From NCBI GenBank assembly GCA_017302835.1, contig JAFLCC010000018.1:1-50071 (forward strand): a DNA stretch of 50,071 nt. Direction: 5' to 3'. Position 1 is the stretch's first letter. Each line of letters opens with the position of its first letter. Shown piece after piece: positions 8,215 to 16,169 of the stretch. A program made the translations under genes and the position numbers. Origin of the DNA: Deltaproteobacteria bacterium (GTDB taxonomy: Bacteria; Bdellovibrionota; Bdellovibrionia; Bdellovibrionales; Bdellovibrionaceae). Below the pieces are notes generated by a model. That model had not been told where the DNA came from. It saw nothing but the letters and a program-made list of their open reading frames with translations, and did no database searches.

Positions 8215-8490
8215 TCAATCTTCATCCAACTGCCAAAAACTAGATAGACCTTGCAAGGGTGGATAGCTCTGATGAGGCAACCTTGTTTTGAATTTAATCT
8301 GACTGCCCGAATGACTCACTCCCATAGCGGCACGTTCATCATAATATAAAAAAGGCAGCAATCTTTTGTGACAACTATGACACTCGGTAACTAATTCACC
8401 TATGCATTCATTTGTAGCTCCACAGACGTGACATCGGCGAAAATGAATTTTGATACCCAAGCGAACCTCTTTTCTAAGAGTGTCGCCCAC
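8215..8490 (-). CDS. Small zinc-ribbon-like protein
   Basis: Not recognised as a named family. The 91-residue product has two Cys pairs, CHVCG and CHSCHK, about 16 residues apart, a spacing that suits a zinc ribbon, with one extra Cys between them. The second half is rich in aromatic and basic residues. No signal peptide or membrane segment is seen, so it is probably cytoplasmic. The start is a GTG inside a GTGTGTGTG run with only a weak ribosome binding site, so the true start is uncertain. It stands alone, 104 bp upstream of the FadL-type gene on the same strand. An inverted repeat lies about 35-50 bp upstream of the start. Confidence 0.6.
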   Translation of the reverse strand: MGDTLRKEVRLGIKIHFRRCHVCGATNECIGELVTECHSCHKRLLPFLYYDERAAMGVSHSGSQIKFKTRLPHQSYPPLQGLSSFWQLDED

Positions 8491-8718: not shown

Positions 8719-8883
8719 TCAAAAACAATTAGCTCCTTCTTCATACTTCCTGATGGATGCAAAAGGATTAAGATCTGTCCATTCAAATCCTCCAGGTGGA
8801 TATTGATCTGATGGAAGAAGCGCAATTAAAATACCTAAATCATGAACTAAAGGAAAAGGAATAATATGAGATGGCTCGAGAAT
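8719..8883 (-). other. Open frame continuing past the stop of the upstream gene
   Basis: After the TAA stop (8884-8886) of the exported protein encoded upstream, the same frame stays open for 54 codons to a TGA at 8719. The peptide reads like real protein (it includes SHIIPFPLVHDLG and GGFEWTDLNPFASIRKY), not like random A+T-rich frame. No ATG, GTG or TTG start with a ribosome binding site was found inside it. It may be the original C-terminal part of the upstream gene cut off by a recent nonsense mutation, a read-through extension, or the tail of a lost gene. Confidence 0.4.
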
Positions 8884-9345
8884 TTAATTTTTAATATTTT
8901 CTGATGGCTGTTTAAGGTAAGTGATGTTTAAAGACGCATCAACTAAAACACTGGAATATTTTGAATCTAAACTGTTATCACAAAGTAAAAGTTTCGTATC
9001 AAAACGGTAGCTCAAAGAATGACAAGAGAACACCTGGCTATTTTCTTTTTGTAATTTTCTATCAACTTGATTAGAATTTTGACTCGTGTTTTGGTTTGAT
9101 TTTTGATTTAGGTTTTTCCGAAAAACATAAATTTCTATTTGAGCTTCTGATGCCGACAGTCCATTCATTGATTTTGATAGATAGGCTTTGGGACCTTTGA
9201 GCATCAAGCAGTGGTTTGAAGGTTGGCATTCATGAATTTCAAAGTCCGTCATTCCTAAAGAAATCACTGCTGGGGAACTTGAACACCAAATCAATAATAG
9301 AATTAAAACCGTACTAGCCGAATTTACCATGATTTTACTTCTCAC
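8884..9345 (-). CDS. Small exported protein of unknown function
   Basis: No family recognised. A hydrophobic signal segment covers about residues 9-25 (STVLILLLIWCSSS); the Cys after LLLIW is a weak lipobox candidate. The mature part has scattered Cys residues (positions 40, 46, 108 and 122) that could form disulphides in the periplasm, and an Asn/Gln/Ser-rich low-complexity stretch near residues 79-94. The start used is a GTG overlapping the upstream gene by 11 nt; an ATG 15 nt later (9330) keeps the whole signal peptide and is equally possible. It is the last gene of the fic operon. Its TAA stop is followed by 54 further open codons in frame, so the protein may have been longer. Confidence 0.65.
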   Translation of the reverse strand: MRSKIMVNSASTVLILLLIWCSSSPAVISLGMTDFEIHECQPSNHCLMLKGPKAYLSKSMNGLSASEAQIEIYVFRKNLNQKSNQNTSQNSNQVDRKLQKENSQVFSCHSLSYRFDTKLLLCDNSLDSKYSSVLVDASLNITYLKQPSENIKN

Positions 9346-10645
9346 ATTTTTTCTGCTGTAAGGGTATCACCGTATTTGCGTCCTGATTTGGAAATATCCC
9401 GGCCATTGTTGGATCACCGACGCTGATCAAATCTCCACATGGATTAAATGTAAAAGGACCTAAATCTCGAATGTCTTTTGGTGGCTTTTGAGTAAACGAA
9501 ATATAATTCGTTTTTGTTTTTATACTTCGACCTGAGTCCTTCAATTCTAGATCTTTCGGCACACCTTTAAAGAAATTCATATAATCATTTAGAAATGAAC
9601 TAAAATAACTATCAATACATATCCCTTCGAAAAAAAGCATGCCTATTCGATTTGGATTTGCTCCTACACCCTTTGGACATGCCAACTTTGGATTGTCTAT
9701 AAACCATCGTACCGCCAGCATTGAATCAATACCCAGATTTTGAATTTGGTTTATTTTTGAATTTTCGCGAAGAAGTCCAAAAGATTTATTATTTAAAAGA
9801 TCATTAAAAAAAGTTGCCTTATCATTTTCTTGACGATCATCATATCGATGGAAAGCTTCTAAATACCCAGTTAAATCATAGGCATTTAAAAAATTGAAAT
9901 AAATTAATGTTATATTTACAAATAATTGAAGTTCTTCAAAGTCTGCTCGATTTAAATCAATTTGATGGCGAATCTTCTCGTCGGGGCAATTAATTTCATA
10001 ATCAAACTGTTTCGTTATTTTCAGTTCGCATGCATCTACAAAACTCTTATTTAAATTTCTTTCAAAAAGCGGTAAATACTTAATGGAAATTTCGGCGTTC
10101 TTATTATGATTCAAAAAATAATTCAAATTTTCAAATGACTTAATTAATTCATCAAAATATTCCTGCAAGTCCTTTTCAACGAAAAACTCCGGGTTCCCAT
10201 CTAGGAAAAACTTTTCCGATACGAGACTACTTGAAAATCCCTTTTTAAAATTTTCATAGGCTTTTGTATCATTTTTAAATAATGGCTTAGACCTTATTAC
10301 AAATCCTTTTAATTTAATTAAACATTCGGTCAGTGACTTGATAAATCCAGCTTTAGCATCTTTAGGATTCGTAGTCACAGCCAAAGAGGCTACTTTGTTA
10401 GCTTCGACGAAGTTATTTGTAGTTAAAATTTCTTCAGCTGAATCTGTGAGCTCTTTTGCCTTTTCTGCCGGAGGAAGATTTGAACTCATAATTCCATCGA
10501 TAGAAATTTTCCTTGAAAGGCCTTCTGAATTATAAGTTGGAGAACAACTAGTAACCATCAAACCAAAGAATAAGCTGAAAACTATTCTCATCAAGGAATT
10601 AGAGATCCAAACGAATATTTGATTTCTTCTTAAATTATTTTTCAT
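9335..10645 (-). CDS. Lipoprotein of unknown function in the fic operon
   Basis: No family recognised. The start at 10645 is preceded by GGAG eight to nine bases upstream; 24 nt of open frame lie further upstream but overlap the preceding gene more. The signal sequence ends in a lipobox, GLMVTSC, so the product is a lipoprotein anchored to the inner or outer membrane. Residues about 65-105 (KELTDSAEEILTTNNFVEAN and on) look like a TPR-type helical pair; the rest is helical, ending in a Cys-containing tail. It overlaps the preceding ART-like gene by 11 nt and is followed by a small exported protein, so the four genes are probably co-expressed and their products meet outside the cytoplasm. Confidence 0.75.
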   Translation of the reverse strand: MKNNLRRNQIFVWISNSLMRIVFSLFFGLMVTSCSPTYNSEGLSRKISIDGIMSSNLPPAEKAKELTDSAEEILTTNNFVEANKVASLAVTTNPKDAKAGFIKSLTECLIKLKGFVIRSKPLFKNDTKAYENFKKGFSSSLVSEKFFLDGNPEFFVEKDLQEYFDELIKSFENLNYFLNHNKNAEISIKYLPLFERNLNKSFVDACELKITKQFDYEINCPDEKIRHQIDLNRADFEELQLFVNITLIYFNFLNAYDLTGYLEAFHRYDDRQENDKATFFNDLLNNKSFGLLRENSKINQIQNLGIDSMLAVRWFIDNPKLACPKGVGANPNRIGMLFFEGICIDSYFSSFLNDYMNFFKGVPKDLELKDSGRSIKTKTNYISFTQKPPKDIRDLGPFTFNPCGDLISVGDPTMAGIFPNQDANTVIPLQQKKCEK

Positions 10646-11747
10646 AGGGTAGTTCTCCAGTACATCCAAATTTATTTTTTTGTAGCCATTCTTTAGTGGT
10701 AGTTGATTTGGGAAGACCTTCTAGATCCTGCCATAACAATTTACCTCTTTGGGTTTTCATAGCCTCTTGGCTAGTTATCAAACCCCCTCCCGGCCGTGGA
10801 TAGGTCCCCATTGCCAAGTCCTTGCAAGTAGTTTCTGTTTCGCAAAGTGTAAGGAAAACCTCGCACTGATCCCCACGGCAACTACTCTTTGAACCTTTCA
10901 CTTTATAGGTTGGGAAAAGAGTCAGGAAATCGGTTAGAACTTGTTTGGCTTGGAAAGATAATTTTGGATCTATACTTTGAAGGGCATCAAAAAAAAGAGT
11001 CTGAATTCGAATTCGATTATCTTTCAAATCAATTGTCTTTGCGTTGTAAAATTGAGCAAACCCTGGCTTCAGCCATTTCTCTCCAGTAATAACAATAGCC
11101 CTTCCAATAAAATTTCTATTTTGGCAAACCTTAAAAAGAGTTTCACCGTAACTATAGGAAAAACCATCTATCTTTAAAATTTCAAAAAAGATTTTTTTAA
11201 CTAAAGCTTTGCATTTGGATTTTAATCTTTCACCACCGTTTTCAAATAATGAATTTATATTTTGAAAAGATTCACATTGGAAATAATCCTTCATTTCATC
11301 GAAGTCTGAAGCCTTGGCATTATCTTGCAGCCTTTGATTTTCTGATAAAGTATAATCGTAAGTAAAATCAAGAAGCTTAAATCCAATGGGTAAATTGAGT
11401 TCTAAAAGAACCCAGGTATCTGATGAACCATAGCTATGTGTTGTTACAGGATCAACAGAAGTATATAACCCATATCCATACATATATGAATTTCCATTAG
11501 TTCCAAAGCGATCCCAGAAAACATGACTTAATGCTTTCGCTCTTTCCAATTGAGCGCTCTGATCCCCTACCTCTCCTCCTTGGCTCCAACTAAAGACAGT
11601 CACAGATTTTTTTAGTGTTTTTACTTTTGTGGCAAAATATTCAACTAATTTGGTAATGTCTTTGCCGTCATAAACGTGCAATGAATCCGCTTTTAAAACT
11701 TGCACAGAAAATAATAAAAATAAACTACCTATAAATTTAAGCTTCAT
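10635..11747 (-). CDS. Exported protein with ADP-ribosyltransferase-like features
   Basis: The start at 11747 lies six bases after AAGGAG and opens a clean signal peptide (MKLKFIGSLFLLFSVQVLKA), so the product is exported. No family is recognised with certainty. The segment VTVFSWSQGG, then YMYGYGLYTSVDP with a following HSYG and a strand WVLLELNLPIG, and later IDGFSYSYGE with AIVITGEKWL, follow the order of strands seen in the ADP-ribosyltransferase fold (basic or His strand, G-x-Y-x-S/T turn, late acidic strand). This is resemblance by eye, not a domain hit. Six or more Cys residues in the second half suggest disulphides. It overlaps the fic gene upstream and the lipoprotein gene downstream by 11 nt each, which implies coupled translation. 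Confidence 0.7.
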   Translation of the reverse strand: MKLKFIGSLFLLFSVQVLKADSLHVYDGKDITKLVEYFATKVKTLKKSVTVFSWSQGGEVGDQSAQLERAKALSHVFWDRFGTNGNSYMYGYGLYTSVDPVTTHSYGSSDTWVLLELNLPIGFKLLDFTYDYTLSENQRLQDNAKASDFDEMKDYFQCESFQNINSLFENGGERLKSKCKALVKKIFFEILKIDGFSYSYGETLFKVCQNRNFIGRAIVITGEKWLKPGFAQFYNAKTIDLKDNRIRIQTLFFDALQSIDPKLSFQAKQVLTDFLTLFPTYKVKGSKSSCRGDQCEVFLTLCETETTCKDLAMGTYPRPGGGLITSQEAMKTQRGKLLWQDLEGLPKSTTTKEWLQKNKFGCTGELPYEK

Positions 11748-12903
11748 TGCCATCTCCTTTTTTTTGCGGCCGAGGTACCACATTACATCCAGCTGTCGTT
11801 GGATCTTGAGCACATCTATTCAAAATATAGAGACTGCGAAGAATCCCTTTGCCAATGGCCTTGGCCCATTCAGATTCAGTTAAATACATATCTTCATCCA
11901 TGTTTGATAAAACTGGGGCCGGCAGACCTAAACTTTGAATATAAAATGAGATTATATTTCTACTCACTCTTCCATTTCCATCAGCAAAGGGATGAACACC
12001 TATAAACTGACGTTGAATTCTTGCCAAAGTAAGCAAGAAATCTTCACTTATTTGCCCTTCTTGCCGCCACTTTAATACTATTTGATTAAGATCTGCTAGC
12101 CACATTTCAAAAGATTTATGCACTTCCACAGCTGATGGATAATCTACATAACCACACTGTGAATCTTCATTTCTTTCGTTTTTAAAAAATTTGGACGCAT
12201 TTACTTCGGCCCACTCGTTTCTAAAAAACCAAGGTTCCTTATTTTTAATTCGAGTTTCAATTTTATCAATAATTCCTGAAATCTGCTGGTCGTAACAAAT
12301 TGTAGGATTCCAAATAAAAAGACTTTTAGATGGGTTTAAATAACTTTTATAACCTGCCCCTAATTTAAGAGATTTAATTTGTTCTTTACTAACTGCTTTT
12401 TTACGATAAATAAATAAGCCAACTTCATCTTGTTTTCGAATTTGGCCTGCATTCATCATCAACTTGTCCATCATTTGCTCGTGCATTTTAAGGATCCATT
12501 CTTCAGAAATAGATGACAATGGAAACTCATTCACGATGTCATCTGATTTTGGTATCGTTAGCTCCATAAAGGCTTGACCTTTTTCCCAACTCATCCAAGT
12601 TTCAGGTGCTGGGTCATAAACAACATAGGGATTAAATTTTGATAAATAGCGATGATGGGCCCAATCAGGTCCATTAATAAATTGTGGCCCAATGTAATCA
12701 CTGATCCTGTCGTAACTAGGAATTCCTTTTTGCTTCAACATGACCTTGGCTTCTTGAAACCGATCATAGACATGACAAAAATTCGAAGTGCCAAGAAATT
12801 GAGTTTTCATATTCTCTAGCAATGCCGGACAAGCGACGACGGGCTCACCAAGTATCAAGATCAATGCTAGAAAATTTAATTTCCATTTCTGTATTTGGCT
12901 CAT
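11737..12903 (-). CDS. Exported Fic-domain protein (predicted AMPylase or other nucleotidyl/phosphocholine transferase)
   Basis: Fic enzymes usually transfer AMP from ATP to a hydroxyl side chain of a target protein. The full active-site motif HPFADGNGR is present (His304), followed by the VSRNIISFYI helix, so the core looks catalytically competent. Residues 1-25 form a signal peptide ending in VVAC, which could be a lipobox, so it is exported; most Fic proteins are cytoplasmic or injected. About 250 residues precede the Fic core and are not recognised. No inhibitory S/TxxxE(G/N) helix was found. The start has GAGGAG eight bases upstream. It is the first gene of a minus-strand operon with the ART-like protein, the lipoprotein and the small exported protein. 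Confidence 0.85.
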   Translation of the reverse strand: MSQIQKWKLNFLALILILGEPVVACPALLENMKTQFLGTSNFCHVYDRFQEAKVMLKQKGIPSYDRISDYIGPQFINGPDWAHHRYLSKFNPYVVYDPAPETWMSWEKGQAFMELTIPKSDDIVNEFPLSSISEEWILKMHEQMMDKLMMNAGQIRKQDEVGLFIYRKKAVSKEQIKSLKLGAGYKSYLNPSKSLFIWNPTICYDQQISGIIDKIETRIKNKEPWFFRNEWAEVNASKFFKNERNEDSQCGYVDYPSAVEVHKSFEMWLADLNQIVLKWRQEGQISEDFLLTLARIQRQFIGVHPFADGNGRVSRNIISFYIQSLGLPAPVLSNMDEDMYLTESEWAKAIGKGILRSLYILNRCAQDPTTAGCNVVPRPQKKGDGNEA

Positions 12904-13025: not shown

Positions 13026-16000
13026 TTAAAATTCGTCGTTCACTGTTCTTTCATTTTCAATTCGGCTGAGGAGTAAATATAAAGAAGGTACTACAATCAA
13101 GGTGAAAAAAGTTGAGACAATACTTCCACCAATAATGGTCAATCCCATGGGAGCTCTTGTTTCTGAACCTATGCTATTACCAATAACCAAAGGCAATGCG
13201 GCAAGTACTGTGGCTACTGAGGTCATCAGAATAGGACGCAATCGTATCGGACAAGCTTCCAATAAAGCCTCTTTAACTAGTCCACTATTTTTAGAGGAAA
13301 GTTGAGTGTTCTTTTCAGGTTGAACTTCATGTTGAACCTTGTGATGTTGAAATAATTTACGACGAATTTGATTTGTAAATTCCACCAACAAAATAGAATT
13401 CTTTTTAGCAATCCCCATAAGCACAATAATTCCAATAAAACTAAATAGATTTAAAGAAACTCCAAAAAGCCACAAAGCTAAAAAAGCTCCGGTGATACTA
13501 AAAGGAAGGGCCACCAAAATAACAACCGGGTGAATAAACGAATTAAATTGAATGGCCAAAATCATGTAGGCTACCACGATTCCAACAAGGAGAGCGCTGA
13601 TCAAGCTTTTGAAAGCTTCTTCTAAACCAGAGGCCGCGCCCTCTAGCGCAAAGTCGTAACCTGCTGGAAGAATTTCCTTGGCATAACTTCTGGTTTTATC
13701 CAAAACGGCGCTCTGGGAAAGACCTTGAGCCAACCCCCCGAAAACCGAAACAATTCGCTGCCGATTGATTCTAGTGATTGTCTGCAAAGCCCCCTTTGTT
13801 TCCATATTCACAGCACGCTCTAAAGGAATCAAATTTCCAAATGAATTTCGTATTTCTAAATTTGAAATATCTTTTTCCGATTTGACGTACTCATCGGGAA
13901 TTTTAATACGTATGTCAAAACGCTTCCCATCGGAAGTAAAACGTCCCTGCCGAATGCCACCGAGTGCCGCATTTAAAGTTTTTGAAACGCTATCTTTGGT
14001 GAGCCCCAAATTATACAACTCTCCAGAGGGCTTAGGCTGCACTAGCAGCTCAGGCAGTCCTAATTTAAAATCTGTATCTAAGTCCACAGAAAGTTTTTCA
14101 TCACTTAAGCGTTTCATTAGTTCTTCAGACTTATCTTTAAGAAAAATTAAATCAGGGCCCCTTAAATTAAAAGCGATAGGAAAGGATCTTCCAGAAGTAA
14201 TTCCTCGAGCTGAGATATCACGCATCTGAATACGAACGCCTTTAACCGCCTTAAATTTTTCTCTGAATTGATCCATGAGCTGAAGATGGGTTAAATCTCT
14301 TGTTTCTTTAGATTTTAATTTCATGGCAATGGTAATATTATTCACTGAGGTGCTTAAACCACCTAAACCTACACTCACAATATAACCTTCCAGATAGGGA
14401 TTATCTTTAATTACATTTTCAACCTCAATGGATTTAGTATAAGTGGTGTCTAGAGAGCTTCCTGGAGGAGTCATTGCCGTCAATAAAATAATATTTTGAT
14501 CTTGCGGTGGCAGTAGTTCTTTTTTAACAAGCTTAATTAATTGTAACGAAACAATAAACACAGCGAGGGAGCCTATCACGACTGTTTTTGACCACTGTAA
14601 TGTTTTACCTAAGATTTTCCGATAGGCATGAGAAAACTTTTCAGAAATTTCATCTAGTTTGTGTTCAAATTTAGAAATTTTTGGACTTCCAGATAGGAAG
14701 GCTGCAGCCCTCATAGGCGTGATGGTTACGGCCTCCAGCAAAGAGAGCAAGATAGCTGCAGACATGGCAATCCCAAACTGAAAGAAAAACTTCCCATAAA
14801 TTCCATCCATAAACACAACAGGTAAAAAGATAGCTACCACAGACAAGGAGGCAGCAATTGCTGAAGGAAGTATTTCCTTTGAACCATCACTTGCTGCCTT
14901 ATTGGGACTTTTTCCCATACGGTAATGGCGAACAATATTTTCCAACAACATGATCGCATCATCTACCACAATCGAAATAGAGAGCGTGAGGGCAAGTAAT
15001 GTAAATAAATTTAAAGTCATTCCCGAAAAATAAAGAATGATAAAAGTACCAAATATAGACGTCGGAATTGAAAATAAAATATTGATGGCCGAACTTAAAC
15101 TTCCTAAAAAGACAAAACAAACAAGAATAGTTATGAATCCAGCTACAATGAGTTTTTCAATTGTCGAATGAACCGTCGCCTTCGTTGGTAACGTAAAATC
15201 GATATTAACTTGAGTGAAAAAGCCAGAGGGCAAATTGGGTTTTAATTCCTCCATTTTTTTTCGAATATTTTCAGACAGATCCACTTCATTCGCACCACGC
15301 TGCTTCTTAACACTCAAGAAAACAGCTTCTTGACCCTTAATTCTTGCCATTCTTCGAATATCACTCAGACCATCTTCCACACGAGCCACGTCTTTTATTT
15401 TTAAAGCTGTTTCTGGCTGCACGATTTGTCCACCACGCTTCAAAATTCGAATCTCTGCAAATTGCTCTGGAGAAATAAGCTCCCCGAGCCATCTCACTCT
15501 TAGCTCCTTATCCTTCGCGACAAACTGCCCGGCCGCTGATTCTCGATGCTGAGAAGAAATGGCTTCCAGAACATCCACGATGGTTAACTCATGCTTTTTC
15601 AGTTTGATGGGGTCAATCCACACCCGTAAGTTGCGAGCTGAAAAACCCGCAATAGAAACTTCGCCAATATTGGGAACAAACCTAATTTTATCCAAATAAT
15701 AATTATCAATCCACCTCATGGTTTCCTTAAGGGACTGACCCGAAGAAACTCCTAGGATCATGATGGGATCTTCCTCGGGATTTGTTTTTCTAATTACAGG
15801 AGGATCTATCTCTGCAGGCAAGATAAGCTGACTTAAATTGGATTGAACTTCCTGCAAGGCCACATCAATATTTCTATTTATATTGAACTCAAGACGAACA
15901 CTGCCTGAACCTTGTCTGGCCACAGACTTCATTTCTTTAACGCCTTCAATATTTAAAAGTCTTTGCTCAATGGGATCTAGAATTTCCGTTTCAATAAGTT

Positions 16001-16169
16001 CTGGCGAAGCTCCTTCAAAATTAACAGATATATCTAATATCGGAAAATCCACGTCGGGCAATTGACTCACCCCTAGACGACTTAAGGATATCCCCCCAAA
16101 AATGATAAGAGCGCTCATCAAAATCCAGGCAAAAACGGGTCGTTTTATGGATAAATCAATTAAATTCAT
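13026..16169 (-). CDS. RND-family efflux pump, inner-membrane component (AcrB/HAE1-like)
   Basis: Proton-driven inner-membrane transporter, normally working with a membrane-fusion protein and an outer-membrane channel to expel drugs or lipophiles. The 1047 residues match the family. Seen: N-terminal LIDLSIKRPVFAWILM, the paired Asp of TM4 in SIVVDDAIMLLEN (near residue 400), the TM10 Lys in GIAKKNSILLVEF, and the final 4-helix block ending LIVVPSLYLLLSR. An insertion of about 30 polar residues (KLFQHHKVQHEVQPEKN region) follows TM10. No fusion protein or TolC homologue is adjacent: the gene upstream by 24 bp is a small exported protein and the glycolytic genes. Substrate unknown. Confidence 0.9.
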   Translation of the reverse strand: MNLIDLSIKRPVFAWILMSALIIFGGISLSRLGVSQLPDVDFPILDISVNFEGASPELIETEILDPIEQRLLNIEGVKEMKSVARQGSGSVRLEFNINRNIDVALQEVQSNLSQLILPAEIDPPVIRKTNPEEDPIMILGVSSGQSLKETMRWIDNYYLDKIRFVPNIGEVSIAGFSARNLRVWIDPIKLKKHELTIVDVLEAISSQHRESAAGQFVAKDKELRVRWLGELISPEQFAEIRILKRGGQIVQPETALKIKDVARVEDGLSDIRRMARIKGQEAVFLSVKKQRGANEVDLSENIRKKMEELKPNLPSGFFTQVNIDFTLPTKATVHSTIEKLIVAGFITILVCFVFLGSLSSAINILFSIPTSIFGTFIILYFSGMTLNLFTLLALTLSISIVVDDAIMLLENIVRHYRMGKSPNKAASDGSKEILPSAIAASLSVVAIFLPVVFMDGIYGKFFFQFGIAMSAAILLSLLEAVTITPMRAAAFLSGSPKISKFEHKLDEISEKFSHAYRKILGKTLQWSKTVVIGSLAVFIVSLQLIKLVKKELLPPQDQNIILLTAMTPPGSSLDTTYTKSIEVENVIKDNPYLEGYIVSVGLGGLSTSVNNITIAMKLKSKETRDLTHLQLMDQFREKFKAVKGVRIQMRDISARGITSGRSFPIAFNLRGPDLIFLKDKSEELMKRLSDEKLSVDLDTDFKLGLPELLVQPKPSGELYNLGLTKDSVSKTLNAALGGIRQGRFTSDGKRFDIRIKIPDEYVKSEKDISNLEIRNSFGNLIPLERAVNMETKGALQTITRINRQRIVSVFGGLAQGLSQSAVLDKTRSYAKEILPAGYDFALEGAASGLEEAFKSLISALLVGIVVAYMILAIQFNSFIHPVVILVALPFSITGAFLALWLFGVSLNLFSFIGIIVLMGIAKKNSILLVEFTNQIRRKLFQHHKVQHEVQPEKNTQLSSKNSGLVKEALLEACPIRLRPILMTSVATVLAALPLVIGNSIGSETRAPMGLTIIGGSIVSTFFTLIVVPSLYLLLSRIENERTVNDEF

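What the first reader, a model, noticed from the sequence alone, without database searches (positions are those of the whole stretch)
8719..12903. Operon of exported Fic-domain and ART-like proteins with a lipoprotein partner
A Fic protein with an intact HPFADGNGR motif and an export signal is followed by an exported protein with ADP-ribosyltransferase-like strand order (GYGLYTSVDP, then DGFSYSYGE and AIVITG), a lipoprotein and a small exported protein. All three junctions can be read as 11-nt overlaps, which implies coupled expression. Fic and ART enzymes use nucleotide substrates that are not normally present in the periplasm of a free cell, but would be if the proteins reach a prey cytoplasm. 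That makes a prey-directed protein-modification system a plausible and apparently undescribed idea. The Fic motif and signals are seen; the ART call and prey role are inference.
Basis: partly seen in the sequence, partly recalled or inferred. Interest (0 to 1): 0.8.

Follow-up and report, generated by a model that had tools for sequence, protein, structure and literature searches.

The report
Exported Fic enzyme with ADP-ribosyltransferase-like partner
A relative of the bacteria-eating bacterium Bdellovibrio carries an operon for a secreted Fic-type protein-modifying enzyme and a partner shaped like diphtheria toxin's enzyme part; the same two protein types are joined again and again across its phylum, which points to an undescribed class of secreted protein-modifying effectors, although this copy of the partner has lost key active-site residues.

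Summary
Four overlapping exported genes lie on the minus strand at 12903-8884, starting with a Fic protein with an intact HPFADGNGR motif (Pfam Fic 6e-9). The second protein has no Pfam, NCBIfam or PDB sequence match. Its AlphaFold model matches ADP-ribosyltransferases in all 20 top structural hits (diphtheria toxin catalytic domain, MbcT, NatT, ParT, ExoA, RES; Z 5.0-6.2), so the ART guess is supported. In this copy, however, the H-Y-E histidine (S53) and glutamate (S197) are replaced, so it is probably a weak, altered or dead ART.

The main result goes beyond the window. Exported Fic and ART proteins are linked across phylum Bdellovibrionota, as gene pairs in both orders and as single-chain fusions. 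I found no paper describing this.

The lipoprotein and small protein are a separate, widespread module, not a specific partner. The operon sits in a variable slot beside AcrB. Prey targeting fits the cofactor argument but was not shown. The Fic model failed (pLDDT 36).

The parts
11737..12903 (-). Exported Fic protein, 388 aa; Fic motif HPFADGNGRVSR at residues 304-315; flap-like GxxR at 153-156; family signature W103xxW106-E107-x-G109
   Evidence: Pfam PF02661 6.3e-9; alignment invariants; signature and absence of a canonical inhibitory motif
10635..11747 (-). Exported ART-fold protein, 370 aa; Tyr strand GYGLYTSVDP (Y95) kept; His strand has S53, third catalytic position has S197
   Evidence: AlphaFold pLDDT 70, pTM 0.65; the 20 best VIA-align rows are all ADP-ribosyltransferases; triad table
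9335..10645 (-). Lipoprotein, 436 aa, family found in 45 of 144 class genomes
   Evidence: lipobox VTSC
8884..9345 (-). Small exported protein, 153 aa (GTG 9345 or ATG 9330), partner of the lipoprotein in many genomes
13026..16169 (-). AcrB-type efflux pump gene, upstream border of the variable slot (not part of the system)
   Evidence: Pfam ACR_tran; synteny
8215..8490 (-). Conserved small 91-aa ORF, downstream border of the slot (not part of the system)
   Evidence: conserved next to the FadL-like gene in G060, G062, G063

Best explanation
The first two genes encode one instance of a secreted Fic-ART effector pair that is widespread in Bdellovibrionota. Both proteins carry Sec signals and conserved cysteines, so they would fold outside the cytoplasm and be released. 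Inside another cell, or in prey contents where ATP and NAD+ are present, the Fic enzyme would attach a nucleotide (most likely AMP) to target proteins, and the ART-fold partner would act on the same target or process. In many relatives the partner keeps the catalytic His and Tyr and may transfer ADP-ribose. In this window it has lost the His and the Glu, so here it more likely serves as a binding or scaffold subunit for the Fic enzyme, or is decaying. The lipoprotein and small protein are an independent envelope module transcribed with it. Shown: genes, Fic motif, ART fold (predicted), recurrent linkage, variable genomic slot. Inferred: enzyme activities, release, target, pseudo-enzyme role.
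For: ART fold: the top 20 structural matches are all ARTs and the unrelated rows below cover a different part of the model; the best PDB sequence match of the wide family profile is the PARP13 ART domain, at the Tyr motif (E 0.06). Linkage: 11 of 28 ART genes in the class lie next to or are fused with an exported Fic, 6 of 9 genera. Outside the class: overlapping pairs in G176, G179 and G339. Fusions in G008, G078, G184, G203, G207, G364; the ART domain of five of these fusions matches the operon ART family at 97.4% probability, E 1.3e-11. Predator genomes: G004, G007, G010 and G046 have the lengths of HD100, SSB218315, Tiberius and Ca. B. qaytius. Export: signal sequences throughout, and conserved Cys counts in the Fic group. 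Slot: different or no cargo in G063, G060, G062.
Against: This copy lacks the canonical His and Glu. The close relatives look damaged: G066 ART has a stop codon and its Fic has D to K in the motif; G063 Fic is frameshifted with D to R. VIA-align Z stays below 8. No secretion route beyond Sec is identified, and no activity or target is known. ART genes without Fic neighbours are common (17 of 28).
Confidence: 0.6

Rival explanations
1. Self-directed envelope regulation: the Fic and ART-like proteins act in the bacterium's own periplasm on its own proteins or on imported prey metabolites, using non-ATP donors such as nucleotide-activated head groups.
For: Sec signals alone place proteins in the periplasm; co-transcription with a lipoprotein module; some Fic proteins use donors other than ATP (AnkX uses CDP-choline, known biology).
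Against: No periplasmic nucleotide pool is known in a free cell; pairing with an ART fold, whose donor is NAD+, recurs independently of the lipoprotein.
Confidence: 0.17
2. Decaying or lost system: in this lineage the operon is a remnant of a once active effector pair, kept open by chance or recent loss of selection.
For: His and Glu lost in the ART; relatives with a stop codon, a frameshift and Fic motif changes; patchy presence in a variable slot.
Against: All four window frames are open, the Fic motif is intact, and codon usage is native in three of four.
Confidence: 0.13
3. Contact-dependent or diffusible toxin aimed at competing bacteria or eukaryotes rather than prey, with the lipoprotein or small protein as immunity.
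For: ART and Fic folds are common toxin folds; tandem ART arrays in G088 and G337 look like diversifying toxin sets.
Against: Lipoprotein and small protein occur mostly without Fic or ART, so they are not cognate immunity; no secretion-system trafficking domain found by Pfam or NCBIfam.
Confidence: 0.1

Closest known systems
Fic/Doc family (PF02661), e.g. SoFic and FICD AMPylases
   Same: HxFx(D/E)GNGRxxR motif, Pfam score above cut-off, flap-like GxxR upstream
   Different: Carries a Sec signal; lacks the (S/T)xxxE(G/N) inhibitory motif; has its own W-x-x-W-E-x-G signature and conserved cysteines; linked to an ART
Diphtheria-toxin-like / PARP-like (H-Y-E) ADP-ribosyltransferases; MbcT, NatT, ParT, RES toxins
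   Same: Predicted fold and Tyr-strand motif GxGLYxxxDP
   Different: No detectable family match by sequence; window copy lacks His and Glu; exported alone, with no known receptor or translocation domain detected; operon or fusion with Fic
HD100-type 770-aa exported Fic protein of Bdellovibrio (L156, L158, L160)
   Same: Exported Fic; C-terminal part with R..STS..RQxE pattern suggests an R-S-E ART (motif level only)
   Different: Single chain, different ART class, HPVLNGNGR with N in place of the acid
Legionella and other injected Fic or ART effectors (AnkX, SidE)
   Same: Use of Fic or ART chemistry on another cell's proteins
   Different: Those are type IV or III secreted; here Sec signals
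Fic toxin-antitoxin modules (VbhT/VbhA, Doc/Phd)
   Same: Fic domain
   Different: Cytoplasmic, with a small antitoxin gene; none here

Membership tests
Fic family (PF02661) | Fic core and HxFx(D/E)GNGRxxR motif | tested here: met
   Pfam 6.3e-9, 37 bits vs cut-off 24; HPFADGNGRVSR at 304
Fic family (PF02661) | Flap hairpin and ATP pocket | tested here: inconclusive
   Invariant GxxR (153-156) fits a flap; AlphaFold model unusable, pLDDT 36
Fic family (PF02661) | AMPylation or other nucleotide transfer | not testable with these tools
   needs biochemistry
Class I-III regulated Fic | (S/T)xxxE(G/N) inhibitory motif in cis or in a small partner | tested here: not met
   absent from P0001; no small antitoxin ORF beside the gene
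ADP-ribosyltransferase superfamily | ART fold | tested here: met
   20 of 20 top VIA-align rows are ARTs, Z 5.0-6.2, 125-159 residues aligned; model pLDDT 70
H-Y-E ART class | Tyr in GxGLY strand | tested here: met
   Y95, kept in 35 of 36 family members
H-Y-E ART class | His in first strand | tested here: not met
   S53 in window; His in most wide-family members, e.g. YHYF in the HD100 copy
H-Y-E ART class | Catalytic Glu | tested here: not met
   S197 in window; E only in the IEY/AEY subgroup; the alignment is not structure-checked at this site
Secreted Fic-ART pair of Bdellovibrionota (proposed here) | Exported Fic adjacent to or fused with exported ART-fold protein | tested here: met
   window plus 10 class members and further pairs and fusions outside
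Prey-directed effector | Delivery into and action on prey | not testable with these tools
   no localisation or activity data; precedent only (PMC12622784)

The most novel reading that the evidence does not exclude
Bdellovibrionota, including the model predator HD100, deploy a phylum-wide class of Sec-exported two-enzyme effectors that combine Fic (AMPylation-type) and ADP-ribosyltransferase chemistry on the same prey process, with some lineages turning the ART half into a non-catalytic subunit of the Fic enzyme.
Probability: 0.35. Interest if true: 0.85.

Novelty: new variant of a known kind. Interest (0 to 1): 0.62.

Why it matters
How Bdellovibrio and its relatives disable prey proteins early in predation is little known; described predation enzymes are mostly wall hydrolases, proteases and nucleases. 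A recurrent secreted Fic-ART pairing gives specific genes in HD100 (about 1,940,902-1,943,214 and 2,715,402-2,716,313 in G004 coordinates) that can be deleted, tagged and assayed. It also suggests that two cofactor-dependent protein modifications are used together by an exported system, which is unusual.

Tried and rejected
Lipoprotein as cognate immunity or dedicated partner: rejected, the lipoprotein plus small protein pair is common without Fic or ART. Fic toxin-antitoxin module: rejected, exported and no antitoxin motif. Phage origin: tblastn of P0002 against phages and viral contig scans found nothing. PHROGs matches for the ART were chance level. Foldseek alone gave no match at E below 0.001, with an ART (SAIP) second; VIA-align resolved it. 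AlphaFold of the Fic protein with two sequences failed. Genome-contig scan with single P0002 found nothing; with A7 it found two metagenome-assembled genomes, G066 and G088. PDB profile search of the HD100 C-terminal part gave no ART, so its R-S-E reading rests on motifs only.

Full report
Check of the observation. The window encodes four minus-strand genes with overlapping ends: Fic 12903-11737, ART-like 11747-10635, lipoprotein 10645-9335 and small exported protein 9345-8884. Codon usage supports the first three frames. The small frame is weaker, but G066 encodes a homologue. The three 11-nt overlaps can be read as stated; the third needs a GTG without a Shine-Dalgarno sequence, and an ATG at 9330 is an equal alternative. 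The stretch 8719-8883 lies after the last stop codon.

The Fic protein. Pfam Fic is matched above cut-off, and the nearest PDB matches are Fic proteins. The motif HPFADGNGRVSR is complete. In 11 of the 15 exported Fic proteins compared, a signature W-x-x-W-[E/D]-x-G lies well upstream of the motif, and the canonical (S/T)xxxE(G/N) inhibitory motif is absent from the window protein. Six cysteines are present in most of the close group. A structure prediction with two sequences failed, so the flap and ATP pocket rest on sequence only.

The ART-like protein. No Pfam or NCBIfam match was found, PHROGs gave only chance-level hits, and no PDB sequence match was found for the single protein. A model from seven sequences has mean pLDDT 70 and pTM 0.65. 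VIA-align places ADP-ribosyltransferases in all of the first 20 rows (Z 5.0 to 6.2): diphtheria toxin catalytic domain, MbcT, NatT, ParT, exotoxin A domain III, Albireti toxin, SAIP and a RES toxin. PARP13, PARP4 and tankyrase follow further down, and the unrelated rows cover a different part of the model. Z below 8 alone would be weak, but the uniform superfamily is hard to get by chance. The best PDB sequence match of the wide family profile is the PARP13 ART domain, at the same Tyr motif (E 0.06).

Active site. Across 36 family members the Tyr of GxGLY is kept in 35, the first-strand His is common (YHYF, YHW), and a Glu at the third position is present in one subgroup that includes the HD100 copy. 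The window protein has Ser at the His and at the Glu position. The close relatives in G066, G088 and G063 also lack the Glu, and most of them the His. I therefore expect little or no normal ADP-ribosyl transfer from this copy.

Link between Fic and ART. Within the class, ART genes lie beside an exported Fic gene on the same strand in the window, G046, G053, G055, G065, G066, G079, G082, G083 and G121, and are fused in G078. Both gene orders occur, often with short overlaps. That is 11 of 28 genes and 6 of 9 genera; with two to eight Fic genes per genome chance gives about 1e-12 or less by genus. The test treats genera as independent and uses a round gene number, so it shows magnitude only. Outside the class there are overlapping pairs in G176, G179 and G339, a convergent pair in G209, and fusions in G184, G203, G207 and G364; in Bdellovibrio itself, G008 has a fusion. 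Those loci were partly chosen for long frames, so no rate should be read from them. The ART domain of five of the fusions matches the operon ART family at 97.4% probability.

Known predators. G004, G007, G010 and G046 have chromosome lengths equal to HD100, SSB218315, Tiberius and Ca. B. qaytius (against the table in PMC11656739). HD100 encodes a triad-intact exported ART (L157) and an exported 770-aa Fic protein (L156). The C-terminal part of the latter shows R..STS..RQxE, an R-S-E ART pattern, at motif level only. Ca. B. qaytius, an epibiotic predator, has the ART-Fic pair (L084).

Lipoprotein and small protein. The lipoprotein family occurs in 45 of 144 class genomes, often followed by a related small exported protein, and at several loci next to a TIGR02147 regulator. 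Only the window and G066 were seen to join this module to Fic-ART.

Genomic setting. In G060 and G062 the neighbours tpiA, the small ORF and the FadL-like gene are adjacent without AcrB or the operon. In G063 the slot between AcrB and the small ORF holds a DUF4423/TIGR02147-like regulator and an exported protein instead. The operon is a variable cargo in this genus. Relatives show decay: a stop in the G066 ART, D to K in its Fic motif, and a frameshift with D to R in the G063 Fic.

Mechanism. Fic and ART enzymes need ATP or other nucleotides and NAD+, which are cytoplasmic. Sec export of both, in predators, fits action on another cell; a Sec-exported Bdellovibrio protein is reported to reach the bdelloplast (PMC12622784). 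How they would cross the prey inner membrane is unknown. Papers on Bdellovibrio in the held library do not mention Fic or ART systems as far as searched; most subscription papers are not held.

Verdict.

Noticed in passing
L066:8266-13480; L169:2847-8256: Tandem arrays of exported ART-family genes: four copies in G088, of which two lack the Tyr-strand consensus, and five copies in G337.
   Followed up: partly
L156:2903-5215; L155, L160, L162, L163, L171: Exported 720-900 aa Fic proteins in Bdellovibrio and relatives whose C-terminal part carries R..STS..RQxE-like motifs, a possible R-S-E ART; some have N in place of the Fic acid (HPVLNGNGR).
   Followed up: partly
L156:1387-2925; L160:7921-9502; L084:2986-4593; L104:7418-9003: A BamB-like gene plus a small lipoprotein gene flank the HD100-type Fic gene, and look-alike lipoprotein genes flank the ART-Fic pair in G046 and G055, suggesting a shared locus.
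   Followed up: partly
window 8719-8883: In-frame open tail of about 53 codons after the TAA of the small exported gene; purpose unknown, possibly a remnant.
   Followed up: no
L161:4609-5241; L159:3330-3962: A 210-aa exported protein of unknown family precedes the triad-intact ART in G010 and G007; in HD100 it is missing and the ART start resembles its signal sequence.
   Followed up: no
L076, L078, L080, L073: Lipoprotein plus small exported protein module next to TIGR02147 regulators, widespread in the class, function unknown.
   Followed up: partly
L186:5463-9755: In G063 the slot that holds the Fic operon in the window carries a DUF4423/TIGR02147-like regulator and a 336-aa exported protein.
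   Followed up: partly
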